This document shows positions 49,034 through 64,000 of a stretch of 64,000 nt of DNA, one piece after another. The stretch's first letter is position 1, and each line of letters opens with the position of its first letter. The stretch is from Exiguobacterium antarcticum DSM 14480 (GTDB lineage Bacteria > Bacillota > Bacilli > Exiguobacteriales > Exiguobacteriaceae), in assembly GCF_000685865.1 (NCBI RefSeq), contig NZ_JMKS01000003.1, positions 1,679,001 to 1,743,000 of the forward strand, read 5' to 3'. Position numbers and translations under genes: made by a program. A model generated the notes under the pieces. The model was not told where the DNA came from and did no database searches. It worked only from the letters and a program-made list of their open reading frames with translations.

Positions 49034-50770
49034 ATGCAAAACCAAATCAATCCTTTTGTTTCTTTTATGCATCAATATGATCTTACAACAGCAGACTATT
49101 CAAAGATATTTGATGAACATACAAAAAAAATTGAGTACAGTATCGATACTAATATTAACAAAAAAATTATCGAAGAACTTTCAACACAGCCACGCTCTAT
49201 TATCATAACAGGAAACGCAGGAGATGGAAAAACTAGGATTTGCAGGAACGTATACGATCAATTAGTAGAAGATGAATTTCAAGGATGGCCTGAATCTGGT
49301 ATTAAAGAAATTGTATATAACAACTACAGAATTCGAATAATAAAAGATTTATCAGAATTGAGAAATGAAGTAATTGTTGAGGAATTAAAAAAATTACAAG
49401 ATACACTCGAAAATAATTTTTCCAATGTATATTTCCTTATTGCGGCTAACGAAGGGAAATTAACGCATACTCTTGTAAAATATCCTGAATTAAATAAATT
49501 AAAAAGTATCGTTATTCCTCAATTTATATCAAACAATAAGGAATTAGAAGCTACGAAAGAAATAAAAGTTTATAACTTGTTGTACGCCTCATCGTCGATT
49601 TATGCTGAAAAAATAGTAGAAGGATGGAATGAAGAACAGAACTGGAGTATTTGTAGTGACTGTTCTAGTAGAAATAAATGCATCATAAATAGCAATCATT
49701 TAGCTTTGAGTGATAAAACAACGAAAAATCGAATGATGCGCATGTATAAATCTTTGGATATGAATGGTAAGCATATGACAATGCGAGAGCTACTCATTCA
49801 CTTAGCCTACACACAAACAGGTGGAATGTCTTGTAAAGATATACATGAAGCTTCTAATAGTGAATCAATTCAAGCACTAGCAAAAAAATCGTACTATGAG
49901 AATTTTTTCGGTAATAATCTAAGACCAGAAGTTTTTGAGGAAATTGGTGGTATTCAAGAATTTAAATCGTTAGATCCTGGATATATTTCAGACTCTTTAA
50001 TTGATGACTTTTTACTTAATGGTGACTTAAGTAGTAATGAACAAATAAAAGACACACATCACACTTTGTTTGGTAAGGATATTGATGTTGAGAACGGCGC
50101 TTATTACGAAGATGTAAAGATGTATCGTTCAAATATACATGGTGATAATGTGAACGGTATTGAACTAATGAATAAGTGGTTTCCAAGGTTAAGAAGAAAA
50201 TATTACTTTGAATCTCAAGACAATAAAAAGGTTGAAAAACTAATCCCCTATCGGCATCGATATGATTTCATAAGCATTCTTCATAGAGGAAGAATTGAAC
50301 ATATTATAAAGATTAAGCTTGTCGATGGATTAAATACATTCTTCGCAAAAAGAATGGTATATTCTCCCTCTCATCAGCTGTATGTATCTTCGGATAGTTT
50401 ATTAGTTCATCAAATTATTGGACTAGATCAAGTTGAATTTCATATTCAAGGTAAAAATGAAACAATAGATCAAACAGGTACAACGTTAACTTTGAAAGTA
50501 CAAGGCATAGAATTAGCTATTAATTTAGTAACGTTTGAGTATTTAATGCGCTTGAGTAACGGAGGCATGTTAAACGTTCTAAGAGAACACGTAGAGATAT
50601 TACTTAATAGTTTTCGAAATAGATTGATTTCGCTAAAAAAACAGGACGAGAATATTTTACAAATTTTAAAGTTCGATCGTATTCAAGGAGCATTCGTATT
50701 AGAGACAATTGAAATTTGTGATGGTAGGGACTCTGTTGTAGATATTGAACCTGAAGATGATGATTTTTAA
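49034..50770 (+). CDS. sspF: SspF/DptF-like ATPase of a phosphorothioate restriction system
   Basis: A 578-residue P-loop protein. Walker A is GNAGDGKT (residues 60-67), preceded by SIIIT. YFLIAANEG near 134-141 may be the Walker B or sensor strand. A Cys cluster lies at 207-216 (CSDCSSRNKC), CxxCx5C, possibly a zinc site. The C-terminus is acidic (DIEPEDDDF). Position in front of a mid-size protein and a 1731-residue FtsK/HerA-like protein matches DptF-DptG-DptH and SspF-SspG-SspH restriction modules. Codon use is AT-rich, unlike the flanks. ATG 49034 follows AAGGAGAC. Function as a nucleotide-driven restriction subunit is inferred from order and motifs; the exact family is not proven. Confidence 0.65.
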   Translation: MQNQINPFVSFMHQYDLTTADYSKIFDEHTKKIEYSIDTNINKKIIEELSTQPRSIIITGNAGDGKTRICRNVYDQLVEDEFQGWPESGIKEIVYNNYRIRIIKDLSELRNEVIVEELKKLQDTLENNFSNVYFLIAANEGKLTHTLVKYPELNKLKSIVIPQFISNNKELEATKEIKVYNLLYASSSIYAEKIVEGWNEEQNWSICSDCSSRNKCIINSNHLALSDKTTKNRMMRMYKSLDMNGKHMTMRELLIHLAYTQTGGMSCKDIHEASNSESIQALAKKSYYENFFGNNLRPEVFEEIGGIQEFKSLDPGYISDSLIDDFLLNGDLSSNEQIKDTHHTLFGKDIDVENGAYYEDVKMYRSNIHGDNVNGIELMNKWFPRLRRKYYFESQDNKKVEKLIPYRHRYDFISILHRGRIEHIIKIKLVDGLNTFFAKRMVYSPSHQLYVSSDSLLVHQIIGLDQVEFHIQGKNETIDQTGTTLTLKVQGIELAINLVTFEYLMRLSNGGMLNVLREHVEILLNSFRNRLISLKKQDENILQILKFDRIQGAFVLETIEICDGRDSVVDIEPEDDDF

Positions 50771-50803
50771 ATCTAAGCAAAAGTAATTGAAAGGGTGTTA
50801 TAT

Positions 50804-52423
50804 ATGCAAGAAGAAAGTGCAAAATTTTCTAGCAAGATTGGTGCTGAAATATGGGGACATCGGTTTAAAGATGGTCAGCGTGGACCAGAGTATACTTTAG
50901 AGTTTTTAAATGTGTTTGCTGGAACAGGTTTTAGTTTAGAAAAGAAGTATTATGATCGAAGAAAAATGATTGAATTTCGTCAGTTTGTTTATGAAGGAGA
51001 GAAAGAAGGCGCGAAAGGTCATATTGCAATTTTCGAAGAAAAGAAAAAAGATGTAATTCGAAAGAAACTTGGAGTAAGCGAAAAACAATTAGAGGATTTA
51101 CAGGTGTTCTTTAAAAATTTAACTATACCTCTAATGACACCGATGGGAAAACCAGTTGATCGCTCTTGGTACGCTCAAACGATGTATCCTCTCCACGAAT
51201 CTTTGCTTTTTTCTGAAGTTCGTGTAAATAGAGATAAAGGTAATTTGAAAAATTTAACAATTAATTATGAGCGTAATTTTTTTGCTCGTGGTGGAGAACT
51301 GTACTTTTTAATGTTGCATTACGGAACATTAAATAATCCTGAATTAAGAATTAATATCGAGAAAAACATGAAAACTCTATTATCTAGTTCTAGTGGAGTA
51401 ATTGCTGTCATTAATCAAATTAACGAAGCATTTAGTGAGTATAGTACTGGAGATCAGCCTGCACCACTAATCAAAGATGAAGAGTTATCAACTGTCATTA
51501 CTAGTTGGGAAAGTAGTGAATACCCAACATTACCAAATACAGATTTAGCATTGTATAAAGAATTTGCAGAAGAACTTAATGCACTGCTCATGCTAAATAT
51601 TGATATTTATGAAATGTTTGATATTTTAACTTCGCTCATAACATTCCAACTTCATCGTTATATGATTTTTCAATCAGAACAAATTATTGGTGAAACGAGC
51701 AATTATTTCATTGATTGCTTAGAAGGTCAAAATAAATCAATTAAATTTTTAGCACAAGATTCTTATCGGATTCACGAAACTATAGTAAGAGAAGCCTATA
51801 AAACTTTTGTAGAAGACCGAGTAGAAGAAATATTCTCTGAAGTCAAAGCGGAAGAAAAAATTTATTCGTGGAGAAATAGCCTTGATAGCTCCGAAAAAGA
51901 TAAAGTGAAGGGCTATTCTGGATTTTTTAACGAATTAAATTTTACTAGTCTTCAAGCAGCCAAAAAGAAAAAACTTATAGAGGCATTAGAGACTGAAGAT
52001 ATTAATAACGCTAAAAAGTTACTTAGATTACGTATCGTAGAACTTTATATGGAGGATTTATCGAAAACACAAGTTCCTATTATGAAAACTTTAGCTCGTG
52101 ATGGTCAGTTCATCGTTTCTGGAAAAGGATCTAAAGCCCGATATGTACTACATGATAATGTCTTAAGTGCTTTAGTGTATGCAACACTTAATGGTCAGAA
52201 TAATTTACCGTATGATGATTTTTTGAATGAATTATTCCAAAAATATCGCATTATTATTGGAGAAAATGCTGCCAAAAATTCTGGGTTATATTCAAAAGAA
52301 GGAATCAATCTAACTCATTTTAGAAGTAATGAGAAGAAAATGAGACAAAAATTAAAACAAAATGGGCTTCTCCAAGAATACTCAGATGCAACAGCACTAG
52401 TTACAAACCCTTATTTTAATTAA
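50804..52423 (+). CDS. sspG: SspG/DptG-like restriction subunit
   Basis: A 539-residue protein without a recognisable catalytic motif. It is mostly helical and charged, beginning MQEESAKFSSKIGAEIWGHR. No P-loop, membrane segment or nuclease signature is visible to me. Its place between the ATPase and the giant FtsK/HerA-like protein is that of DptG/SspG, an obligate partner of unknown biochemical role. ATG 50804 has AAAGGGTG upstream, 33 bases after the previous stop; an in-frame start three codons earlier is less well placed. It is AT-rich like its neighbours. Confidence 0.6.
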   Translation: MQEESAKFSSKIGAEIWGHRFKDGQRGPEYTLEFLNVFAGTGFSLEKKYYDRRKMIEFRQFVYEGEKEGAKGHIAIFEEKKKDVIRKKLGVSEKQLEDLQVFFKNLTIPLMTPMGKPVDRSWYAQTMYPLHESLLFSEVRVNRDKGNLKNLTINYERNFFARGGELYFLMLHYGTLNNPELRINIEKNMKTLLSSSSGVIAVINQINEAFSEYSTGDQPAPLIKDEELSTVITSWESSEYPTLPNTDLALYKEFAEELNALLMLNIDIYEMFDILTSLITFQLHRYMIFQSEQIIGETSNYFIDCLEGQNKSIKFLAQDSYRIHETIVREAYKTFVEDRVEEIFSEVKAEEKIYSWRNSLDSSEKDKVKGYSGFFNELNFTSLQAAKKKKLIEALETEDINNAKKLLRLRIVELYMEDLSKTQVPIMKTLARDGQFIVSGKGSKARYVLHDNVLSALVYATLNGQNNLPYDDFLNELFQKYRIIIGENAAKNSGLYSKEGINLTHFRSNEKKMRQKLKQNGLLQEYSDATALVTNPYFN

Positions 52424-52452
52424 TTCAAAGTACTGGGAGGGAGCATTAAGAA

Positions 52453-55400
52453 ATGATTGCAAGAATTACTCAAAAAGAAAAAATAATAGGCAGCTGGATT
52501 GCACAACACTTACTTAATTATCTTAAAGATCATAAAAATAAAAATGCTGAAAAAGTATTAGTAAAAATAGAAGGAATTAATGAAGAATACTTTCCAGCCA
52601 TTTTGAACGCTCTATTAGAAAATCAAGCTCAACTCAAAAGCTTTTATGAACCATTGATACGAACTATAAAACAAATTGATGGTTATGATTCCTTTGTTTT
52701 AAATGAAAATGAAAATGGAGTATGGTTGCGAAATAATGTAAAAACGAATGAAGCATTAATTTTATTAATGAATGAACGAACACCAGAAGCTCAAAGCTTA
52801 AAAGATATTGTTTCTATTGATGAAACACAGCTACTATCATCAGATGGTTTTTTCAGTTTAGATCAATCTCTTCAAGAAAGAGGATATTTAGAACCACATC
52901 AGATAAAAGATTTACTCAAACTAATTGGAGCATATCAACATAGAGGAGAACTAGATTTACAACTTTCGATGCTTATTGCATATATTGAAAGTGTGTTACA
53001 AGAGAAAGAAACATCTAATGATACATTTAAAGTGATTTTAGGGAAATCTTTACCTCATTTTCGATTATTTAAAGACGAGCATTTAAAGTTTGAGTCGTTA
53101 GAGGGACTTCGTAATCAGCTTAGAAAAAACTTTTTATTAAGTCACCTAAGAAAAACTTTAGTAAATTATTTAGATCCAGAAAAATTGATTAAAAATGTGG
53201 ATAATTTCATTGGTAATGAAGAAAAAAATAATTTTTCAAGTGAAGTTTGGAAAAACTTTAATAACGATAAAATATTATTTTTAGAAAAAACAATGGAGTT
53301 TGTTGAAAGACGAAATAATGATCTTTTAAGTCTAGTTTCTTACAATGATGCAGAACGAATTTTTGGTTTTAAAGTGTCTAATTCTTTAAAAGATAAATTG
53401 AATAATACAAGAGATATAATTCTAGACAATTTTGCAGAAAAAATTAGAGAAGCAAATAATATTGAAGAAGAGAACCAGTTAAAACAAGAAAAAATGGAAG
53501 CAGAAAGTCGCTTTGATCGCGGTGTTGAAGCCGTAAATAGTAAAAATGATATTGAGGCGATTCGAGAATTTCGAGAAGAATATGAACAAGAACTTGAAAA
53601 AGAAAATATATTAAAAAAAATTATCAATCTTGAAAATAAGCTTGAAAATCCATCTGAGTATATTGATATTTTTGAAGCGATTTTATCTGAAAGCTTAGTG
53701 ATGTTAGAGGAAATAGAACATGAAGAATTCAATGGTAATCTTTCCTTTGAAATTTCAATTGATCAAAACATAGAAGTTTCTGAAGAACAAGCTAGATTCT
53801 TTAATTTCCATCTGAAATCTTTATCAATGCTATCTTCAAACGTAATTGTTCTTTCTGAATTGAAAAGTTCCAATGAAGCATCAAAAGAGATTGATGTAAT
53901 TCCTGTTAAATTAAGACTCTTAAAAAATGAAAATTCGATATCGAAATCTATCGTTAAAGTCGATGCTAGTAGAACGTTAATTGAGACGAGTTTCTCAAAG
54001 TTTATTAATCAAATTCAAAACGGATTTTTACAGTCTATTGTTACGAAAAAGGGTACGCCAGTTGAAGAAGATTTTAATGAGTATTTGAATGAACAACAAA
54101 ATTATACTTTGATGTCTGATAAAAGATTGTTAGAACCCATCGAGCAATTTAAAAAATACAATACAGAATACACTAGTATTCTTAAATCTATTATCGACGA
54201 AAATAGAGGAATAACTACTGAAGATTTAAATCGAGTAGCTGCCCTTAGCGAATCATTTTTAAAGTGTTCTGATCATGATGTAGATAGTGTTAGGAAAATA
54301 TACTCACTTCTGAATGAAATTGGAACAATAAAGATTTTTGAAACTAAAAATGTTAAACAAGCAGAAGTTGAACGGAAAATAGTATCTGTGTTCAATCCTA
54401 TTAGATTTATTGCTTATGGATTTAAACTTATTCATTTTGGAAATTTACTCTCTAATATTTCTGATACATCGGAACAACGTAATAAAATCCAAGATGTAGA
54501 AGATTTAAAGCAGTACAAAGAGTATCTAAGAGGATCGTTTACTAACTTAGCACCATCTTATTACGTATCTAGGGATGGTAATCATCTATTTGCACAAGAT
54601 GAACTATACGGTCAGGGAACGTATATCGAGGGTGGAGAAGTTGAGAGTGTTTCCTCCCAAGCAACTTCCTTTGCGAAAGAAATTGAAAAAGTTACAAACG
54701 ATTATGTTCGAGTTTATCCATATGCTGCGGATTGTTTAGATATTTTATTCTTATATGTTACAAATTTAGAGTTTGTAAAAAAGAGTGTGGAACAAATTTT
54801 GAAAAATGATAGTTTAAAAAAGCTGAATATAACAATTCACAGTCCTGCGAGAGCTGCAATGCTTTATGATGAGATAAATCGATGGATTCAATCGCAAGAA
54901 GAGTACATTAACGCTGTGGATTCGTTTGGTGAATTTCCTAGATTAGAAATCAATGTATTACCATTTAGCGATCCTAAAACACTTGAGGAAAAGCTAGATA
55001 CATCCATGCTAGACTTTGATTTAGCAGTGTTTATTGATTATTTCGGTCAAAGTGACAACTTAAAAATTCCACATCAATTTTACTCGGAAAGCTACAAAGA
55101 ATGTGAGCTTACAGATAAAAATTGGGTCTTTTATGAGAATCGTGAATTTAAAGCTGTCAAAGAAGGTACTCGATTAATCAACTATGTTTCACCTAACCAA
55201 CCAAAGTTGATGCAACAATTTTATAATATGCAAGCGATTTTAAAAGACGGATTAGTCATCGAACCTAACAAGATTGGTCTATTAAAAGGTAGATTATCTG
55301 TAACGCGTACAGAAACAAATACACTATACAAACTTGCACATGAAAAGTTTAATTGGGTTGTCACTTACGATAGATTTATGGATCCTTTATTAATGAAACA

Positions 55401-57648
55401 AGTAGCCGAAGGGTCGAATATTATTCGTTATCATGTAAATCGATTAGGAAAAGAAGAAATTAAAGTTCTTGTTTCTTCTTCAGACTCAATTAGAAGATCT
55501 TCAAAAGTGGATATGGAAGTCAATTATTATCGTGATCGTCTCCATAGTAGATTAAAAGATCAGTTGAAAGTTAGTAGTATAGATATACAACAGGTTGATA
55601 AAGCTCTTAAAGTTGTAAAAGAATTATCCGGTGGTCTAGTGCTAAGAGCATTAGGACCCGGGAAATTTGTTAACGAGTTTTTATCAGTATATTTAACTGT
55701 TTTACAGGATAGAAAGTCTGATAATACTGTAGTTTTATGGGATATGTGTGATGAATTAGAGTGGTTTAGAACCCGGCAAAAACGTCCGGATTTATTAAAA
55801 ACAACTATTCAATATTCTCCGGAATCAGAAACGTATAATGTTAAATTTGATTTAATAGAATTAAAGCTTATACAGGAAGAAAGTTATGTTAGTGAAGTAA
55901 CTGACGCTAAAGTTCAATTAATATCCGGTGAGAAAACGTTGAAAAAATTCTTTAGAAGATTTGATTCGACACTCGAAAGAAATCTATATTTAAATTCATT
56001 TTTGCTTCATTTAGAAGATAAGCGTGCATATGAAGAATTTGAATTAGCGATACTACATGAATTAAGAAATAACGAAAACATTCAAATCAATTTTGAATTC
56101 ACAAAGTCAATTTATGCTTATATTCATAATAAAAATATTGAATTTGAAGGTCGTTCGGAACTTTCACCTGGACATTATTACGAAAGAGAAGACGAAAATG
56201 AAATAGCAGTAAATACTTTTACTAGATCATACATTTTATCTGAAATGAATGTTCCTGATCATGAAGTAAATAATGAACTGCAGGACGAAGAAGTATTATT
56301 AGAACAGGTTGCTATAACTGATGATAGTGAATACTTTAATCACTATACACAAATAGATAATAGTAATTTTATTTTGACTGAAATACCGAAGGACAAAGTT
56401 ATAGAGGAAAGCGACTTACAGAATCAAAGTGAATCGAATATAAAAAATGAAATACGAGATATCGAAGTAGTTAAAGATATTGAGGAATCTCAATACCCAG
56501 AAGATCACGCATTAAAGAACGTTCAAGCTCCACAAACAGAATCATTTGATGAAGCACTGAAAAAACAAGGGGATAGTTACGCAGACACTCTACAGACTAA
56601 ACTTAGAATAAACAATGTTCAGTTTACAGTAGAACGAACTATCGTAGGTGCTAGTGTCATTCGTATTATTGGTAGAATTCCGTCGGATCAAAGTATTACA
56701 GCAGTTGAAAAGAAGGCTAAAGATATGCCTTTATGGCTGCATATCGATTCGCCACCAACTATTTTTAGTGATCGAAATGGTATCAATATAGACATTAATC
56801 GTAATGATCCTGATACAATTTTCTTTTCACAGTTTATGAAGTACGTTCGAAGAGATATCACAGAAACAGAACTGAAAAATGGTTTTCTTGTTCCTATTGG
56901 ACTAAATCCTTTAAATGAAGTGATGTCAGTTGATTTTAACGGTACAGAACCTCATATGTTAGTCGCTGGATCAACAGGAAGTGGAAAAAGCGTAAGTTTG
57001 AATTCCATTGTCATGTCTATGATGTGTCTATACACACCCGAAGAATTGAAGTTCGTATTTATAGATCCAAAACAAGTTGAATTCTCTATGTTTGAAGATG
57101 TTCAGCATACTGATAAAGTATTATTAGATTTAATGGATTCTGCTGATTATTTAGATGTTATGATTATGGAAATGGAAAATCGATATAGTAAATTTAAAGA
57201 TTCTTATGCAAAAAATCTGAAAGAATATAATGAAGCGCTAATTGAAGAAAATAAATCATCAGAAGTTTTACCTCGTATTGTTATTGTTTTTGATGAATTT
57301 GCTGACTTCATGATGCAGGATAAAGAATTTGCACAACGCATCGAAACTGCAATTAAAAGGATTGGTCAAAAAGGACGAGCTGCGGGAATTCATATGATAG
57401 TTTGTACACAATCACCCAAGGCGGAGATTATTAGTACTACTATTAAAAATAATTTACTAGCACGCTTAGGATTAAAAGTCACAGACGCAGTTGCATCGAA
57501 TGTTGTATTAGATACAAGTGGTGCAGAAAATTTAGCAGGAAAAGGTGATTATCTTTTAAAGAAAGATAGAGAACCAGTTAGAGGGAAAAGTCCTTATTTA
57601 GAGCCACAATCTTTACGAGCTTTAATGAGGTTCTTTAAAAATAACTAA
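52453..57648 (+). CDS. sspH: SspH/DptH-like FtsK/HerA ATPase (1731 aa)
   Basis: A giant 1731-residue protein. The N-terminal two-thirds are helical, with a coiled coil near residues 330-405 (EEENQLKQEKMEAESRF). The C-terminal domain is an FtsK/HerA-type translocase: Walker A GSTGSGKS (1506-1513), Walker B VIVFDE (1610-1615), and QKGRAAGIHMIVCTQSP, the FtsK-like sensor stretch. The size and C-terminal FtsK-like ATPase are characteristic of DptH-type proteins of phosphorothioate-dependent restriction. It is preceded by GGGAGGG and 29 bases after sspG. It would translocate on DNA; which part cleaves is unknown. Alternative: another FtsK-like defence system with similar gene order. Confidence 0.72.
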   Translation: MIARITQKEKIIGSWIAQHLLNYLKDHKNKNAEKVLVKIEGINEEYFPAILNALLENQAQLKSFYEPLIRTIKQIDGYDSFVLNENENGVWLRNNVKTNEALILLMNERTPEAQSLKDIVSIDETQLLSSDGFFSLDQSLQERGYLEPHQIKDLLKLIGAYQHRGELDLQLSMLIAYIESVLQEKETSNDTFKVILGKSLPHFRLFKDEHLKFESLEGLRNQLRKNFLLSHLRKTLVNYLDPEKLIKNVDNFIGNEEKNNFSSEVWKNFNNDKILFLEKTMEFVERRNNDLLSLVSYNDAERIFGFKVSNSLKDKLNNTRDIILDNFAEKIREANNIEEENQLKQEKMEAESRFDRGVEAVNSKNDIEAIREFREEYEQELEKENILKKIINLENKLENPSEYIDIFEAILSESLVMLEEIEHEEFNGNLSFEISIDQNIEVSEEQARFFNFHLKSLSMLSSNVIVLSELKSSNEASKEIDVIPVKLRLLKNENSISKSIVKVDASRTLIETSFSKFINQIQNGFLQSIVTKKGTPVEEDFNEYLNEQQNYTLMSDKRLLEPIEQFKKYNTEYTSILKSIIDENRGITTEDLNRVAALSESFLKCSDHDVDSVRKIYSLLNEIGTIKIFETKNVKQAEVERKIVSVFNPIRFIAYGFKLIHFGNLLSNISDTSEQRNKIQDVEDLKQYKEYLRGSFTNLAPSYYVSRDGNHLFAQDELYGQGTYIEGGEVESVSSQATSFAKEIEKVTNDYVRVYPYAADCLDILFLYVTNLEFVKKSVEQILKNDSLKKLNITIHSPARAAMLYDEINRWIQSQEEYINAVDSFGEFPRLEINVLPFSDPKTLEEKLDTSMLDFDLAVFIDYFGQSDNLKIPHQFYSESYKECELTDKNWVFYENREFKAVKEGTRLINYVSPNQPKLMQQFYNMQAILKDGLVIEPNKIGLLKGRLSVTRTETNTLYKLAHEKFNWVVTYDRFMDPLLMKQVAEGSNIIRYHVNRLGKEEIKVLVSSSDSIRRSSKVDMEVNYYRDRLHSRLKDQLKVSSIDIQQVDKALKVVKELSGGLVLRALGPGKFVNEFLSVYLTVLQDRKSDNTVVLWDMCDELEWFRTRQKRPDLLKTTIQYSPESETYNVKFDLIELKLIQEESYVSEVTDAKVQLISGEKTLKKFFRRFDSTLERNLYLNSFLLHLEDKRAYEEFELAILHELRNNENIQINFEFTKSIYAYIHNKNIEFEGRSELSPGHYYEREDENEIAVNTFTRSYILSEMNVPDHEVNNELQDEEVLLEQVAITDDSEYFNHYTQIDNSNFILTEIPKDKVIEESDLQNQSESNIKNEIRDIEVVKDIEESQYPEDHALKNVQAPQTESFDEALKKQGDSYADTLQTKLRINNVQFTVERTIVGASVIRIIGRIPSDQSITAVEKKAKDMPLWLHIDSPPTIFSDRNGINIDINRNDPDTIFFSQFMKYVRRDITETELKNGFLVPIGLNPLNEVMSVDFNGTEPHMLVAGSTGSGKSVSLNSIVMSMMCLYTPEELKFVFIDPKQVEFSMFEDVQHTDKVLLDLMDSADYLDVMIMEMENRYSKFKDSYAKNLKEYNEALIEENKSSEVLPRIVIVFDEFADFMMQDKEFAQRIETAIKRIGQKGRAAGIHMIVCTQSPKAEIISTTIKNNLLARLGLKVTDAVASNVVLDTSGAENLAGKGDYLLKKDREPVRGKSPYLEPQSLRALMRFFKNN

Positions 57649-57653
57649 ACTTA

Positions 57654-57691
57654 CAAAGTAGCCAAGAGTAATCTGGCTACTTTGCTTTGTT
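57654..57691 (+). terminator. Terminator or attenuator between sspH and sspB
   Basis: CAAAGTAGCCA pairs perfectly with TGGCTACTTTG and is followed by CTTTGTT, a weak T tract. It could partly stop transcription and lower expression of the downstream pair. Confidence 0.6.
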
Positions 57692-57711
57692 AAAATTAAG
57701 GTGGGTTACGA

Positions 57712-58578
57712 ATGGGTTTTGGACAGCATCAAAGTTTTTACTTACGTCCGCAATGGCTGTATAAAGGATTAAATGAAATTAAAAGCGATGCTCGCTTTTT
57801 TTATAATGACACTCATTTTGAACAACTAGGGTTAGGAAAAAATATGGCGAAATCAGCGAAGTACTGGTTGTTCTCAACAGGTCTCATGGAAGAGAAAAGA
57901 CAATCAGGAAAAACAGAACATCACCTTACTTCTTTGGGAGAACTAGTTGATAAACATGATAAATATATTCAACATCCTGTTACAAAAAGTATTCTGCATT
58001 ATACTTTAGCCTCTGATCCAAAAATCGCAACAAGTTGGTATTGGTTTTTTAATGTATTTAGAGAATCGATTTTCGATAAAGCGATACTAATAGAAACGTT
58101 AGAAACTTGGGTCAGTCATACGCTAGAAAAATCAGTGTCTGCTAATTCACTAAAAAGAGATATCGATTGTCTCATTCAGATGTATAGCCCAAATAATCTT
58201 TCATCTACTCCTGAAGACGTTATCAAAAGTCCGTTCGAAGAGTTAGGGTTGATAAGTAATACAGTTAAAGGTACTTATAAAAAAACACCACTGGATACGG
58301 TATTTAAGTTTGAAGTACTTTATATCACTTTTTTGATTTATACAGAAAGAAATGAACTCAATGAAGTGAGTCTTGATGAATTAATAGAGGGTGAGAATCT
58401 ATGGGGGAAAATTTTTAATCTTTCAAGATCTGAAATTGTCAACTGTCTAGAGGAGATGCAAAAAAGATATCCAATAATTTTTACTAGAACGAACCGTCTC
58501 GATGTAGTTAGGGTTACTGATAAAACTAGTTACTTAGATTATATGGAACGATTTTTTGAAAATGAGGTAGTGCTATGA
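57712..58578 (+). CDS. sspB: DUF4007 protein, SspB-like
   Basis: A 288-residue protein of the DUF4007 family. The signature start FGQHQSFYLRPQWLYKGL and GLGKNMAKSAKYWLFSTGL match DUF4007. SspB of single-stranded phosphorothioate systems has this domain and acts as the DNA nickase needed for sulfur insertion. The C-terminal half contains a helical region (SRSEIVNCLEEMQKRYP). ATG 57712 follows AAGGTGGGTTACGA. It overlaps the next gene by four bases (ATGA), so SspB and SspC are coupled. Assignment rests on the domain and neighbours. Confidence 0.78.
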   Translation: MGFGQHQSFYLRPQWLYKGLNEIKSDARFFYNDTHFEQLGLGKNMAKSAKYWLFSTGLMEEKRQSGKTEHHLTSLGELVDKHDKYIQHPVTKSILHYTLASDPKIATSWYWFFNVFRESIFDKAILIETLETWVSHTLEKSVSANSLKRDIDCLIQMYSPNNLSSTPEDVIKSPFEELGLISNTVKGTYKKTPLDTVFKFEVLYITFLIYTERNELNEVSLDELIEGENLWGKIFNLSRSEIVNCLEEMQKRYPIIFTRTNRLDVVRVTDKTSYLDYMERFFENEVVL

Positions 58579-61500
58579 AAAAGTTTCAACCTAGTATTAA
58601 TGTAGTGTACGACACAGGGAAGTCCGAACTGTTTGATATGTTTGTTCCTAACAATGATCAGTTAGAAATTATGGAGAATATAATATCAAGTCTGTCCAAA
58701 AAAAGCTTAGTCAATTCTCATCTTATGATTGGTCCATATGGAGCAGGAAAGTCAATGGTTGGGGCAATTACCGCCTCGTTAATAACGGCAAGAAAAAACA
58801 GTAAAGATGTAAAATCGTTCTTATACAATGTGAGCGGTTTGAACAATGATTTATCGGATAAAATTAAAAATAATTTATATGAGAATAGTATCAAGTGGAT
58901 TCCGATTACAATTACAGGTAAAAATGGACGGATTGACGAAATTATTTTAGAAGCTATTCAGTTGAAATTAAAGTCAGAAGGAATTGTTTTATCTCTTAAA
59001 GGAGATAGTGAGCAAATTCTTCAAATGATTGAACTGTGGAATAATGACTATAAAGATACGTATTTGAAATTAGTAAATTTATGTACATCTTTTGGATGTA
59101 CTATAGAGGAATTGATTCAAGGAATTACTATAAATGATGAAAGATTTATAGTGGAATTTAAAAAAATGTATGGGACTTTGACTTCTGGAGCTACATATAT
59201 TTCAGAATCAAAAGCATCATTTGTTGAAAAAATTCAACACCTAACTAATCAATTATCTATAAAGAAAATGGGGCTTTTTATTATTTATGATGAGTTTGGG
59301 AGGTTTCTTCAAGGTGTAAATCAATCGTTGATTTTTCAAACCATGCAAGATTTACAAGATATCGCTGAATTTGCAAATAGATCTTCGAACTTAGGCTTAC
59401 TCTTTATTACTCATACAGGTCTTCGACAGTATTCAACAGAGAGTAATAACTTATCTAAAGAGGAATTAGAAAGAGTTGAAAAAAGATTTGAATCGCATCG
59501 GCTAGATAGTGATCCTTCTTTATTTTATAGAACAGCATTTAAAATACTTGAGATTGTTAAAGAAGATAATACAGCAAACTTATTTTTGTTAAACGATATA
59601 GAAAGAATAAAAAACGATTTAAAAAAGTATAATCTTTTTCCAGATATGGAAGTATCTGAAGTTGAGAACTTTATTTTAGAGAAGTGCCAGCCTATACATC
59701 CATTAACAATTAGATTATTACCTATTCTTTCGAATATGCTAGGACAAAACGATCGAACATTATATACATTTTTATCTCAATTTGATGAGACTAGTCTAGA
59801 GACTGATTGGTATTATGCGGATCAGTTATTTAATTATTTTTATCCAGATGAATCTTCATTTTATCTAATTGATGATTTAAAGTACTATCGACTATCAATG
59901 AGTTACCAAATATCAAACGAAGCAAAAAGACTGGTAAAGTTAATGACTTTATTGAATATATCTAATAAGCCTTTTAAACTTTCTGTAGATTTTTTATCCT
60001 TTTCACTAGGTAGCAATGAGATGAAAATACGCGAAAGCATAGAAGAACTGAAAAAAATAAAGATTATAAGATACAATCCGCTAGCTTCATCATATGAGTT
60101 ATATAGTGGATCTATACTCTCTTTAGAATTCCTAATAGAAGAATATCGTTCTAAAACAGTTATAAATGATGGAACTAGAATTAAATTTTTAAATGATTTT
60201 TTACCTAACAAATATTTTCTACCTCATGAGTATAATAGCGTTAAAAGTATGACCCGTTTTGTGGAATCCCAATTTGCCTGGGGAAACGTTTTAAATTTAG
60301 ATACCCCTATCGGTGATGGAATGATACTATATATGATCTATAAAAATGATCAAGAATTAAAAAATATCCAGGACTTCGCAATAAATCCTGAAAGAAAAGA
60401 TATCTTAGTTTGCATTACGAAGTTAAACACTAAAGATTTAATTATTAAATTAGATGAATTTATGATCTTAGATCTTCTATTAAATACTTCAGAACTAATG
60501 CAACAAGATGAGAATTTAGAAGCGGAAATTTTGATTCATTTAGAGAATATAAGATTTGAAATCGAAAAACTTTTACGACCAATTAGGCATTTTGAGAAAG
60601 ATAATTTAACTTGGTATATCAATAATGATGTTGTCAAAATCGATTCAAAGAATTCACTCGAAAAGAAAATTTCAAATTGGATGTTCGAGAGATTCCCAGC
60701 AACGCCGGAAATTAGAAATGAAGGGTTCAACAAAAAGAATGTTACATCCATTCAAAAGAAAGCTGCTAAAAGTATCTTGTCTCAATTACTTTCACCTACA
60801 TTTTCAGGTAGTTTTGATATTCAAGGATTTGGTCCGGATTATTTAATTTATGCAACTATGTTTAAAAATACAGGAATTGATACAAATAATCTAAGTCAAA
60901 TAGCTGATGATAATCTGCTGAAATTAAGGTACGATTTACTCTCGTATCTCAAACAGAATAGAAGAGGGAAAATTGTTGGTTTATACGATTTATTGAGACA
61001 TGAACCCTATGGCATTAGAGAACCACTAATACCACTATTACTAATAGCTCTATTAAAAGACGCTTGGCATCAGATGGCGTTTTATTCAAATGATTTTTAT
61101 ATCCATGAATTGAATGCAGATATGCTATATGAAATTTTAGAGTTAAGAGCAGATTTTTATGAATACGAACTATATGAATTATCTTCAGCAAATTTAAATC
61201 TACTCAAAGATTTAAATACTACTTTCTTTGATGGTACTTTATCAGAACAGCCTGTAATCATTTTTACAGAGCTAACCCGATGGTTACGGAACTTGCCAAG
61301 GTATACTCAAGTAACTGACCAATTAACTAATGCTGAAAATCAATTCAAAGAAATTATTCGACATAGTGAAACCGACCCACTAGCATCGATTACTAATCTA
61401 GCAAAAATTATTGAAGATAGTCGTGATTTAAAGATTTTAAAATCAGGATTAGAAAACCATTTAAGTCTTTTGATAGAACAGATTAAAGAAGAAGTTCTTC

Positions 61501-61922
61501 TTAAGATGGAAATCGAATCAAACGAAGACATCTATAAGTGGGCTGATAGCAATAAAGAACTTGTATTAAACAGCTCAATATTAGCTGGATTCGTTTCAGA
61601 GTACGCTCAGAATGAAGATTGGTTAGCGTATTTGATCGAAAAAATTGTCGGAGTTGCATTAAAAGATTGGTCAGATGTCACATATGATTCGTTTTGGATG
61701 AACTTCAAGCAGTTATTGGTGACTAACCAAAATCAAGATGGATTAATAAAAATAGTGACTGACAATCAAACCATTATGGAAATTAAAGAAGTCGAGCTCT
61801 CTGTTAAAGGTAAGACTATCTATAACAATGTAAGCAGAATCGTAAACGCTGGTAGTAGAACGATGTCGGATGATGAAATTCGCTTCGTTGTGTACAAGAT
61901 TTTAAGTGAGTTAGAATCTTGA
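58575..61922 (+). CDS. sspC: SspC-like P-loop ATPase (1115 aa)
   Basis: A 1115-residue P-loop NTPase. Walker A is GPYGAGKS (53-60), Walker B is FIIYDEFGRF (Asp239-Glu240). The following helical region (LGLLFITHTGLRQYS) is consistent with an AAA-like fold. The remaining 800 residues are helical with no other motif seen. In SspBCD systems SspC is the large ATPase paired with SspB. It is coupled to sspB by a four-base overlap and converges on an SspD-like gene across a perfect terminator. AT-rich codons as in the whole island. Confidence 0.72.
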   Translation: MKKFQPSINVVYDTGKSELFDMFVPNNDQLEIMENIISSLSKKSLVNSHLMIGPYGAGKSMVGAITASLITARKNSKDVKSFLYNVSGLNNDLSDKIKNNLYENSIKWIPITITGKNGRIDEIILEAIQLKLKSEGIVLSLKGDSEQILQMIELWNNDYKDTYLKLVNLCTSFGCTIEELIQGITINDERFIVEFKKMYGTLTSGATYISESKASFVEKIQHLTNQLSIKKMGLFIIYDEFGRFLQGVNQSLIFQTMQDLQDIAEFANRSSNLGLLFITHTGLRQYSTESNNLSKEELERVEKRFESHRLDSDPSLFYRTAFKILEIVKEDNTANLFLLNDIERIKNDLKKYNLFPDMEVSEVENFILEKCQPIHPLTIRLLPILSNMLGQNDRTLYTFLSQFDETSLETDWYYADQLFNYFYPDESSFYLIDDLKYYRLSMSYQISNEAKRLVKLMTLLNISNKPFKLSVDFLSFSLGSNEMKIRESIEELKKIKIIRYNPLASSYELYSGSILSLEFLIEEYRSKTVINDGTRIKFLNDFLPNKYFLPHEYNSVKSMTRFVESQFAWGNVLNLDTPIGDGMILYMIYKNDQELKNIQDFAINPERKDILVCITKLNTKDLIIKLDEFMILDLLLNTSELMQQDENLEAEILIHLENIRFEIEKLLRPIRHFEKDNLTWYINNDVVKIDSKNSLEKKISNWMFERFPATPEIRNEGFNKKNVTSIQKKAAKSILSQLLSPTFSGSFDIQGFGPDYLIYATMFKNTGIDTNNLSQIADDNLLKLRYDLLSYLKQNRRGKIVGLYDLLRHEPYGIREPLIPLLLIALLKDAWHQMAFYSNDFYIHELNADMLYEILELRADFYEYELYELSSANLNLLKDLNTTFFDGTLSEQPVIIFTELTRWLRNLPRYTQVTDQLTNAENQFKEIIRHSETDPLASITNLAKIIEDSRDLKILKSGLENHLSLLIEQIKEEVLLKMEIESNEDIYKWADSNKELVLNSSILAGFVSEYAQNEDWLAYLIEKIVGVALKDWSDVTYDSFWMNFKQLLVTNQNQDGLIKIVTDNQTIMEIKEVELSVKGKTIYNNVSRIVNAGSRTMSDDEIRFVVYKILSELES

Positions 61923-61970
61923 TAGATACTATGATCATCTAGGAGCTAAAGTACGTTTATTTATCAAGTT

Positions 61971-62024
61971 AAACTATACAAAAAGGTAGCGGATTTTATC
62001 CACTACCTTTTTGTATAGTTTTTA
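61971..62024. terminator. Long bidirectional terminator between sspC and sspD
   Basis: AAACTATACAAAAAGGTAG (61971-61989) pairs perfectly with CTACCTTTTTGTATAGTTT (62003-62021), 19 base pairs, with a T run on each strand. It serves the two converging genes. Confidence 0.9.
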
Positions 62025-62025
62025 T

Positions 62026-62910
62026 TTATGAGAAAGAACATACACAAGGAATAGTATCGTCTTTTTCACTTAAATATTTTTCAATTCCATCTCTATCCAT
62101 CAGTTCTCTGTATTCACGCAATGTGAATGGTCCACCATTTCTTTTTAAAATAGAAACATCTTTCTCAAACTTACTACGGAAGCGTTCTTCCATAGCTTCT
62201 TGCTCCGCGTATTGCTCGGGCCAGACATTATATAAAAGAGCATAATGACCTAGGCCTCCTCGGACACATCGACCAGCACAGTTTGCGTGAGAAAAACCTA
62301 GACCATACATTCGCGGCAATGCAATTTTCCATTCGTCACGAATAATCTCTTTCGTATCAAAATCACCTTTAAAAGTTTCAATCATAGGAAAACGTGTTTC
62401 GATCGGTTCAATTGGGTTGTGCTCGTAGAAATTTTGAAGGTTGATAGCTCGGTGTTGCTCATGAGGTCCAATACCGAAATAAAGTATTGGTTCAAGATTA
62501 TGCTCATCTCGGAGTTCTTCTAAATAAATCATTGTTTGTCGAACCTTTAATTCCTCTGAGCATTTAGCCATACGTGAATTACCCAAGAATTTAACATCAT
62601 GGAAAACTTCATCGGGCGTTCTTCCATCTATTCGAGTAGTAATTTCCATACCGATATACTCTGCTACTTCATCCATGAATCGATAGTTATCGATATCTTC
62701 CCAAAGTGTATCAGTGAAAAAGAGTACACAGTTCTCTTTTCCATATTTCTGAACGATATGATAAGCAACATATGCTGACGATGCACCGCCACTAAACATT
62801 GCTACGTGCACTGGCTTTCTACCAGATAATGAAGGAGTAGTACCTGCTTTTAATACACCTAGTGCTGATCGATCAGAGGTTTTTTGAGTTTTTACGTTAT
62901 TCATATTCAT
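62026..62910 (-). CDS. sspD: PAPS-reductase-like protein, SspD/DndC-like
   Basis: A 294-residue PP-loop ATP pyrophosphatase of the PAPS reductase/DndC kind. The PP-loop is FSGGASSAY near the N-terminus. Cys residues in SRMAKCSEELKV and ANCAGRCVRGG, and the C-terminal TIPCVCSFS, could hold an Fe-S cluster. In Dnd/Ssp systems this protein activates DNA for sulfur transfer. It lies opposite to the other genes, across a bidirectional terminator, and has its own expression. The start was set at MNMNNVKTQK (ATG 62910; GAGAGGTG upstream). General PAPS-reductase-like alternatives cannot be excluded, but linkage with DUF4007 favours SspD. Confidence 0.72.
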   Translation of the reverse strand: MNMNNVKTQKTSDRSALGVLKAGTTPSLSGRKPVHVAMFSGGASSAYVAYHIVQKYGKENCVLFFTDTLWEDIDNYRFMDEVAEYIGMEITTRIDGRTPDEVFHDVKFLGNSRMAKCSEELKVRQTMIYLEELRDEHNLEPILYFGIGPHEQHRAINLQNFYEHNPIEPIETRFPMIETFKGDFDTKEIIRDEWKIALPRMYGLGFSHANCAGRCVRGGLGHYALLYNVWPEQYAEQEAMEERFRSKFEKDVSILKRNGGPFTLREYRELMDRDGIEKYLSEKDDTIPCVCSFS

Positions 62911-63088
62911 TTTAAAACACCTCTCTCTCGAAAACAAAATATCCATTTATTTTCTAATTATAAGTATAAAGCTCATTTCTAATGACGAATTGTAATATTA
63001 AGTGCAACACCTGACGGAAAACACAAAAAGCCCATAACGGCCTCGTGTAGAATGGAGTTACCACACCACATTCAACGGAGGATTTGTT

Positions 63089-64000
63089 ATGAGCTATATT
63101 CATCTTACCACATCAGAAAGAGTCAAAATAGAAACGTATCTCGATTTAGGTTTATCCGTCCGAAAGATTGCGGGACGCCTGGGGCGTCAACCTTCTACGA
63201 TTTCACGAGAATTAAAACGAAACCCTTACTATGATGCTTCTTGTGCTGACCAGCGTTATGTTGAGCGCAAAAAGAAGTGCGGTGCACGGACGAAGTTCAC
63301 GCTAGAAAAAGGAGTTCGTATCCTCGAAAAGTTACGCGAGACATGGTCGCCTGAACAGATTGCCGGACGTTTATTCCAAGAAGAAGGACTATCCTTCAAG
63401 ACAATTTATCGCTGGATCTATACGGGCCTCGTCGAGACCAATTCTAGTTTTCTTCGCCAAAAGGGAAAGCGTCAGAAACCACGTGAGACGCGTGGACGCT
63501 TCAATGTCGGATTACCAATCAGTAAACGTCCAGCCGACGTCAAAGGGCGCCAAACGTTTGGACATTGGGAGCTGGATACTGTCGTCTCAGCCAGAGGGAA
63601 ATCCAAGGCATGTGTCGCAACGTTCGTCGAGCGAAAGAGCCGTTTCTATCTCGCTGTGCCGATGGAGGATCGGTCCGCTGCCTCGATGGAGTCAGCGATT
63701 AAAGCATTGCATCTCTACTTCCCGTCGGGAACGTTTCAAACCGCGACGACAGATCGTGGAAAAGAGTTTAGCTGTCATGAACGAATTCGTGAAACGTTAG
63801 GCGTACCGATGTATTTTGCGGATCCGTATTCTTCTTGGCAACGTGGAAGTAACGAGAACGCCAATGGTCTTCTCCGTGAATTTTTCCCGAAGGGGACGGA
63901 TTTCGGAAAGGTCAGTCGTTCTGAACTCGCTCAAGCGCTCGCCTGGATCAATGGGAGACCACGGAAATGTCTCAACTGGAAAACTGCATACGAGGTCTTC
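63089..64000 (+). mobile_element. IS30-family transposase (partial)
   Basis: 304 codons, open to the right edge; the end is missing. An N-terminal helix-turn-helix of the IS30 type is present (YIHLTTSERVKIETYLDLGL, VRKIAGRLGRQPSTISRELK). The DDE catalytic core is seen with the Asp in GHWELDTVVS, the Asp in TTDRGKEF, and the Glu in RGSNENANGLLREFF. ATG 63089 follows GGAGGATTTGTT. The left inverted repeat should lie near 62998-63025 but is not certain. Base composition is like the rest of the chromosome rather than the AT-rich island beside it, so it was probably inserted later from a related genome. Confidence 0.88.

What the first reader, a model, noticed from the sequence alone, without database searches (positions are those of the whole stretch)
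49034..62910. Phosphorothioate-type phage defence island: SspFGH-like module joined to SspB-SspC and inverted SspD
Six genes: a P-loop ATPase, a helical partner, a 1731-residue FtsK/HerA-like protein, a DUF4007 protein, a 1115-residue ATPase, and a PAPS-reductase-like protein. Known biology: DUF4007 SspB, ATPase SspC and DndC-like SspD perform single-strand DNA phosphorothioation; SspFGH restricts unmodified DNA. The combination is expected in sspBCD-sspFGH cassettes, but the present order, with sspD opposite and separated by a terminator, is notable in a Bacillales-type genome.
Basis: partly seen in the sequence, partly recalled or inferred. Interest (0 to 1): 0.8.

Follow-up and report, generated by a model that had tools for sequence, protein, structure and literature searches.

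The report
Mosaic phosphorothioate phage-defence island
An Exiguobacterium genome carries a complete six-gene system that probably marks its own DNA with sulfur and attacks unmarked phage DNA; the kind is known, but here the sulfur-inserting enzyme stands apart on the other strand, and the two genes thought to choose the marking site look as if they have been swapped as a unit.

Summary
In detail: 49034-62910 carries six intact genes, sspF-G-H-B-C on + and sspD convergent on -, behind a strong hairpin terminator. PADLOC names all six: an SspBCD-SspFGH DNA-phosphorothioate restriction-modification system, a published kind (PMC8092258). The sspD profile hit is weak (44.5 bits), but 58-67% identical proteins lie inside B-C-D-F-G-H operons of four other Bacilli. 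Inverted sspD recurs: same order in two sister genomes and in another family (G572); in E. chiriqhucha and E. alkaliphilum sspD lies divergently upstream of sspF.

New here is mosaicism. Against E. chiriqhucha, F, G, H are 76-81% identical but B and C only 45-46%, with the step at the start of sspB. Between E. chiriqhucha and E. alkaliphilum, a young recombination tract covers the 3' end of sspH plus B and C. So B-C appears to be exchanged as a cassette; where D belongs historically is unresolved. The island sits in a variable slot between ridA and a lacI/sugar-transport locus. No phosphorothioate or restriction was measured; that the swap changes the target site is inference.

The parts
49034..50770 (+). 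sspF, P-loop ATPase, 578 aa, Walker A GNAGDGKT
   Evidence: PADLOC SspF 7.6e-245; motif; invariant C207, C210, C216 over 9 aligned SspF
50795..52423 (+). sspG, 542 aa, GTG start
   Evidence: PADLOC SspG 1e-144; weak MAD7 similarity 1.7e-4, far under its cut-off
52453..57648 (+). sspH, 1731 aa, C-terminal FtsK/SpoIIIE-type motor
   Evidence: PADLOC SspH 8.3e-94; Pfam FtsK_SpoIIIE 1.8e-43 at residues 1482-1655
57653..57685 (.). stem-loop in the sspH-sspB gap, leaky terminator or processing site (inferred)
   Evidence: stem-loop in 6 of 6 loci examined, three distinct versions; listed as terminator-like on the - strand only
57712..58578 (+). sspB, DUF4007, 288 aa, DNA-nicking subunit by homology
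   Evidence: PADLOC SspB 1.5e-55; DUF4007 8.7e-70; solved SspB 6juf/6lb9 by sequence 3.2e-15 and by low-confidence model, top three Foldseek hits
58575..61922 (+). sspC, P-loop ATPase, 1115 aa, overlaps sspB by 4 nt
   Evidence: PADLOC SspC 4.8e-95; Walker A GPYGAGKS; no Pfam match at 0.05
61974..62018 (.). hairpin terminator between the convergent sspC and sspD
   Evidence: comparable hairpins at this place in G003, G002 and G572
62026..62910 (-). sspD, PAPS-reductase-like, 294 aa from the conserved start (306 aa from 62946)
   Evidence: PADLOC SspD 3.9e-12; PAPS_reduct 3.2e-5; orthologues in other ssp loci; five invariant cysteines in 10 of 10 ssp rows

Best explanation
A complete SspBCD-SspFGH phosphorothioate restriction-modification system. 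A host cysteine desulfurase passes sulfur to SspD, which activates it; SspB nicks one DNA strand at its target with the ATPase SspC, and sulfur enters the backbone, marking self DNA. SspF (ATPase), SspG and SspH (FtsK-like motor) form the restriction arm that damages DNA without the mark. The locus has three blocks: F-G-H; B-C after a conserved stem-loop; and sspD alone on the other strand behind a terminator. B-C has been exchanged by recombination as a unit, separately from F-G-H. Shown here: gene identities, motifs, layout and its recurrence, the mosaic. Inferred from characterised relatives: sulfur transfer, nicking, marking, restriction. Inferred with less support: that B-C sets the target site and that a host IscS-type enzyme supplies the sulfur.
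For: Profiles for all six. SspD orthologues in B-C-D-F-G-H operons of G448, G617, G524, G564 (58-67% by blastp) and beside F-G-H-B-C in G002, G003, L032, L033, G572 (80-99%) (these loci were fetched around SspF or SspH, so they are not an independent sample). Mosaic: window-L032 identity F81 G78 H76 against B46 C45, dN 0.14-0.17 against 0.50-0.52, largest step at SspB codon 14, chi2 430; inside the window group B and C (94, 92) diverge like F, G, H (94, 95, 95). L032-L033 same-codon use at identical residues 51-70% in F, G, H to about codon 1100 and D, 77-99% in the end of H, B and C. Two core proteins give a host yardstick: SufS 80-81% and the IscS-type protein 62-63% between the window genome and G423/G419, so F-G-H divergence is within host range and B-C is below both.
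Against: No phosphorothioate, nicking or phage assay exists for this locus. No linked SspA, and in V. cyclitrophicus sspA could not be replaced by the resident iscS (PMC7188994, passages), although V. anguillarum FF-93 uses IscS (PMC8092258). SspD scores only 44.5 bits. D does not clearly share the F-G-H history: it is slow everywhere (78% to G572, where F, G, H are 36-43%), and its tree puts the window with G572 rather than L032 (59/67 and 86/83). In the B-C tree the window and L032 groups still pair, weakly (73/65, 58/25), so a donor of the swapped B-C was not found. The right end of the L032-L033 tract is not sharp.
Confidence: 0.82

Rival explanations
1. The PAPS-reductase-like gene is a phage- or plasmid-type passenger, and F-G-H-B-C works without phosphorothioate, as a standalone capture/restriction complex like those proposed for DndFGH alone.
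For: Weak SspD profile score. Relatives of the gene are common on phage contigs (38 loci) and plasmids (30 records), with no SspB, SspC or F-G-H detected in the fetched flanks of those 38. SspG and SspH show distant similarity to MADS proteins.
Against: 10 of 10 Bacilli ssp loci with this SspD type have it in or beside the ssp genes. Ssp rows keep SGG at the nucleotide loop in 10 of 10, the viral rows have T or S for the first G in 35 of 37, so the window gene belongs to the ssp kind.
Confidence: 0.08
2. B and C are not exchanged; they simply diverge faster between the two Exiguobacterium groups (diversifying selection on target recognition).
For: B and C are the less conserved genes in several other pairs (for example G524-G564: B38 C35 against F59 G62 H62). 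The window and L032 B-C still pair weakly in the tree.
Against: Inside the window group B and C diverge like F, G and H. L032-L033 show the opposite contrast, B and C being the youngest part at synonymous sites (fourfold identity 84 and 82% against 46, 46 and 45% in F, G and D), which selection on protein sequence does not explain.
Confidence: 0.12
3. The piece that moved is F-G-H: it was shared recently between the two host lineages, while B, C and D keep an older split.
For: The window-L032 to window-G572 distance ratio is close to 1 for B, C and D and low for F, G, H (from identities). The D tree puts the window with G572.
Against: F-G-H divergence (76-81%) lies within the range of two core proteins, 62-63% and 80-81%, so no recent sharing is needed; between L032 and L033 it is B-C that is young, and F, G and D are old.
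Confidence: 0.2
4. A decayed or rearranged remnant of a once ordinary operon, no longer working as a unit.
For: Gene order differs from the B-C-D operon; an IS30 copy has inserted near the sspD start; G002 has broken frames in sspF and sspC.
Against: All six window frames are open, motifs intact, and the order is kept in G003 and in G572 of another family.
Confidence: 0.06

Closest known systems
SspBCD-SspFGH of Vibrio anguillarum FF-93 (PMC8092258, parts 1-3 of 5 read)
   Same: Same six protein families by profile; no linked cysteine desulfurase needed there (IscS was used); no SspE.
   Different: Published sspBCD is typically a three-gene operon; here sspD is convergent and separate, and B-C comes after F-G-H. 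Mark and restriction not measured here.
SspABCD-SspE
   Same: SspB, SspC and SspD families.
   Different: No SspE among the seven proteins scanned; the rest of the genome was not searched for it. SspE needs the mark to act; SspFGH attacks unmarked DNA (PMC8092258).
DndABCDE-DndFGH
   Same: Sulfur chemistry; FtsK/HerA-type motor and ATPase in the restriction arm.
   Different: F, G and H match Ssp and not Dnd models in PADLOC; no DndD or DndE seen among the six genes.
Type-4 BREX (PMC12839542, passages read)
   Same: DUF4007, PAPS-reductase and BrxC-like ATPase are shared; SspB and SspC give weaker BrxP and BrxC hits.
   Different: No PglZ or BrxL among the seven proteins scanned; BrxP-type fusion absent.
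MADS
   Same: Distant similarity of SspG to MAD7 (1.7e-4) and of SspH to mad8 (1.9e-21).
   Different: MAD7 far below cut-off (20.8 of 410 bits); other MADS genes not seen.

Membership tests
SspBCD-SspFGH system | SspF, SspG and SspH adjacent in one direction | tested here: met
SspBCD-SspFGH system | SspB (DUF4007) and SspC next to F-G-H | tested here: met
SspBCD-SspFGH system | SspD, PAPS-reductase-like ATP pyrophosphatase, linked | tested here: met
   weak profile, supported by orthologues in B-C-D-F-G-H operons and invariant cysteines
SspBCD-SspFGH system | sspBCD as a three-gene operon (stated as typical, not required) | tested here: not met
   sspD is convergent and separate
SspBCD-SspFGH system | cysteine desulfurase, linked SspA or a host IscS | tested here: inconclusive
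   none of the 12 class-V aminotransferase matches lies in the window; SufS and two IscS-type proteins elsewhere; which one serves is unknown
SspBCD-SspFGH system | single-strand phosphorothioate in DNA | not testable with these tools
   needs LC-MS/MS
SspBCD-SspFGH system | F-G-H toxic without the mark; phage resistance | not testable with these tools
   needs bench assays
SspABCD-SspE | SspE adjacent | tested here: not met
   no SspE hit among the seven proteins 49034-63997; whole genome not searched
DndFGH (DptFGH) | F, G, H match Dnd models | tested here: not met
   no Dnd model at E 0.001 for the six proteins

The most novel reading that the evidence does not exclude
B-C is a swappable target-choice cassette: closely related F-G-H restriction complexes work with B-C pairs of different specificity, much as specificity subunits are exchanged in type I restriction systems. 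With sspD placed outside, homologous recombination, using the conserved 3' end of sspH as one arm, can replace B-C without touching the sulfur chemistry. It would follow that SspFGH reads the phosphorothioate itself, or its density, more than one fixed sequence.
Probability: 0.33. Interest if true: 0.68.

Novelty: new variant of a known kind. Interest (0 to 1): 0.46.

Why it matters
What SspFGH takes as self is open: in published work a CCA single-strand mark protected and a GAAC/GTTC double-strand mark did not (PMC8092258). Related SspFGH sets (76-81% identical) that nature has paired with very different SspB-SspC make this testable: measure the marks of the two Exiguobacterium groups and cross-pair their F-G-H and B-C. 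It would also show how a phosphorothioate system can change its mark without attacking its own genome.

Tried and rejected
AlphaFold of SspG (3 rows) gave pLDDT 44.6 and was not used. SspB gave 54.5; only its match to solved SspB is used. No solved relative of SspC or SspF by sequence at E 0.1; SspG and SspH were not searched there. The idea that SspD was replaced by a phage-type enzyme was dropped once orthologues were seen in B-C-D-F-G-H operons. I first took the ORF after sspD in G002 and G003 for an IS30 copy; one search shows a P-loop protein without a match to the IS30 transposase, and the IS30 copy is absent there. Viral scans: no SspB relative by the patterns used; one distant, fused SspF; one contig with F-G-H-like genes. 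The shuffle count of the breakpoint scan was 0 of 200 in all six comparisons, controls included, so I rely on the size of chi2: 426 and 430 against 23, 25 and 43 in the three control comparisons; a further value, 177, marks the divergent SspF N-terminus of L032/L033. dS between window and L032 is saturated for F, G, H, C (reported as -1) and D was not computed. AU tests were run on clades named after the trees were seen, with mixture=False.

Papers: PMC8092258 parts 1-3 of 5; PMC12839542, PMC10853773 and PMC7188994 passages only; others as search listings with the start of the abstract. In searches (openly licensed papers only, listings capped) I saw no description of B-C exchange or of an Ssp system in Exiguobacterium; this is not proof of absence. 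A comparison of B-C exchange with type I specificity subunits is recalled, from no call.

Full report
WHAT IS THERE. Six uninterrupted genes fill 49034-62910: F 578 aa, G 542, H 1731, B 288, C 1115 on the + strand, and D on the - strand, its stop at 62026. PADLOC names each: SspF 7.6e-245, SspG 1e-144, SspH 8.3e-94, SspB 1.5e-55, SspC 4.8e-95, SspD 3.9e-12. Pfam supports DUF4007 (8.7e-70), FtsK_SpoIIIE (1.8e-43) and PAPS_reduct (3.2e-5, just over its cut-off). Walker A motifs are intact in F, C and H. sspB and sspC overlap by 4 nt. A hairpin at 61974-62018 separates the convergent C and D (z -6.10).

THE HOST. The two named relatives found for SspH are E. chiriqhucha and E. alkaliphilum (best segments 75-76%), and G423, whose SspC is 100% identical to that of E. 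chiriqhucha, is placed in the window's family; I infer Exiguobacterium.

IS D REALLY SspD? The weak score made this doubtful. In one search the window protein finds 58-67% identical proteins inside B-C-D-F-G-H operons of four other Bacilli (G448, G617, G524, G564) and 80-99% identical ones beside F-G-H-B-C in G002, G003, L032, L033 and G572. That is 10 of 10 loci with this SspD type, the window included, but the loci were fetched around SspF or SspH, so the sample is not independent. S52, G53, G54, A55, S57 and five cysteines are the same in 10 of 10 ssp rows. G074 instead has a 575-aa BrxP-like protein with SGGKDS and a linked SspA, so SspFGH loci use at least two kinds of SspD; G388 has a distant set with a 24% SspD match.

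LAYOUT. F-G-H-B-C> <D occurs in the window, G002, G003 (3 of 19 genomes of the genus have the full-length SspH; the other 16 match only in the motor) and G572. <D F-G-H-B-C> occurs in L032 and L033. B-C-D-F-G-H in one direction occurs in the four other Bacilli, with extra genes between D and F in G448. So sspD is its own transcription unit in both Exiguobacterium layouts (inference from order and terminator). A stem-loop lies in the sspH-sspB gap in 6 of 6 loci examined, in three distinct versions; it lacks a clear T-run on the + strand, so I read it as a leaky terminator or processing site (inference).

MOSAIC. Window against L032: F81 G78 H76 D83, B46 C45 % identity; dN 0.14-0.17 for F, G, H and 0.50-0.52 for B, C; synonymous sites saturated. 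A scan of amino-acid differences over F-G-H-B-C puts the largest step at SspB codon 14 (23% to 55%, chi2 430); the same scan gives 25 for window-G003 and 23 for window-G572 (all beat their 200 shuffles, so size is what counts). Inside the window group B and C (94, 92) behave like F, G, H (94, 95, 95). Two core proteins differ by 19-20% (SufS) and 37-38% (IscS-type) between the window genome and G423/G419: F-G-H is in that range, B-C is below it. L032 against L033: identical residues use the same codon in 51-70% of cases in F, G, H to about codon 1100, and D, and in 77-99% in the last part of H, B and C; fourfold sites agree at 46, 46, 67, 84, 82, 45% in F, G, H, B, C, D; step chi2 426 at SspH codon 1072. 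The tract's right end is not sharp: DNA to the right is 84-93% identical.

D AND THE TREES. D is 83% identical between window and L032, but also 78% to G572, where F, G, H are 36-43%, and its tree puts the window with G572 (59/67; 86/83). So D's own history is unresolved. In the B-C tree the window and L032 groups pair weakly (73/65; 58/25), and no closer B-C relative of either was found in 398 class genomes. Other Bacilli show conflicting trees: F-G-H joins G524 with G564 (100/99), B-C and D join G524 with G448+G617 (100/100 each); AU p 0.003 for F-G-H against the B-C clade, 3e-5 (B-C) and 5e-5 (D) against the F-G-H clade. G564's B-C and D are closest to those of G237 (100/100; 99/97), whose B-C-D stands beside PbeA- and PbeC-like genes and which has no SspF match. 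The published sspBCD tree already did not cluster by partner (PMC8092258). The new point is that in Exiguobacterium, where D stands apart, B-C without D is the piece that changes.

DISTRIBUTION. SspF profile: 13 of 398 phylum, 6 of 38 order and 13 of 398 class genomes (sets overlap, weak and fused matches included). SspC: 14 of 398 class genomes. Of these 14, 10 also have an SspF match: 8 were laid out with F-G-H beside B-C; G423 and G419 have F and C about 8 kb apart on one contig and are read as L032 and L033 or close kin from 100% and 96% SspC identity. Of the other 4, G237, G543 and G673 have PbeA- and PbeC-like genes beside B-C-D, and in G636 other genes, transposase-like by eye, lie between B and C.

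THE SLOT. The sugar-binding-protein gene right of the island is found in 18 of 19 genus genomes. Besides the window, 17 of them were laid out, 14 with 20 kb fetched. A ridA-like gene was within reach in 9 of 17 (G014, G009, G001, G016, G008, G017, G015, G003, G002); in the other 8 it was not seen. Of the 9, G002 and G003 carry ssp there, as the window does; the other 7 carry 6.6-17.4 kb of other genes between ridA and the VOC/lacI side. A PLD-helicase gene (Pfam on the G014 copy) lies in this stretch in those 7 and in G010, with a partial match in G011; no match in the window, G002 or G003. G015 adds DruA and another SspF/SspH-like set. In the 25 kb of L032 and L033, of the window's flanking genes only one small ORF matched, so those islands seem to lie elsewhere.

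MECHANISM. Shown: genes, motifs, layout, mosaic. From the literature on relatives: SspD binds SspA and probably takes its sulfur (PMC7188994, passages), SspB nicks, SspBCD marks one strand, SspFGH harms unmarked DNA and is toxic without the mark (PMC8092258). Inferred: the same here; B-C sets the site. That SspB is the DNA-recognising part rests on the solved relative and on PMC10853773 (triple winged helix, passages).

VERDICT. Real, complete and of a known kind; the layout variant and the B-C mosaic make it worth a targeted experiment.

Noticed in passing
L124-L160: Solitary SspD-like proteins on phage contigs (38 loci, up to 50% identical). Of 37 aligned (L161 truncated, left out), 32 have T and 3 have S where all 10 ssp rows have the first G of the SGG loop, while the five cysteines are kept in 36-37. 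No SspB, SspC or F-G-H in the fetched flanks of those loci. Possibly a phage sulfur-modification or counter-defence enzyme.
   Followed up: partly
L065 10499-12711 and L066 8976-12982: Plasmid relatives of SspD near DNA cytosine methyltransferase genes in a Streptomyces and a Rossellomorea plasmid (2 of 3 records looked at, of 30 found).
   Followed up: partly
L165 2205-6599, L166 13562-17938, L167 848-5196: SspB-C-D beside PbeA- and PbeC-like genes in three Bacilli, a candidate restriction partner for SspBCD sets without SspFGH or SspE.
   Followed up: partly
62997-64000 (runs off the window; right end near L010 3023): IS30-family copy inserted about 87 bp before the sspD start codon, in the upstream region of sspD; absent at this place in G002 and G003. 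12 matches in the genome, 8 of them at 100% by rounding.
   Followed up: partly
L032 5896-6561 and L033 5917-6567: SspF of E. chiriqhucha and E. alkaliphilum has an N-terminal extension of about 220 aa absent in the window; no Pfam family over cut-off.
   Followed up: partly
L036 near 5130 and 13765: G002 has broken reading frames in sspF and sspC although the island is otherwise 94-99% identical; sequencing error or decay not decided.
   Followed up: no
L038 8541-19951: G015, same genus and same slot: an SspF/SspH-like set with DruA and a PLD-helicase gene instead of ssp.
   Followed up: partly
L010 3067-5003: Right of the IS30 copy: a MazG-like gene and a Schlafen-group-3-helicase gene with a sub-threshold GIY-YIG match, also near the slot in G013, G008, G001 and G010; possibly another defence pair.
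   Followed up: no
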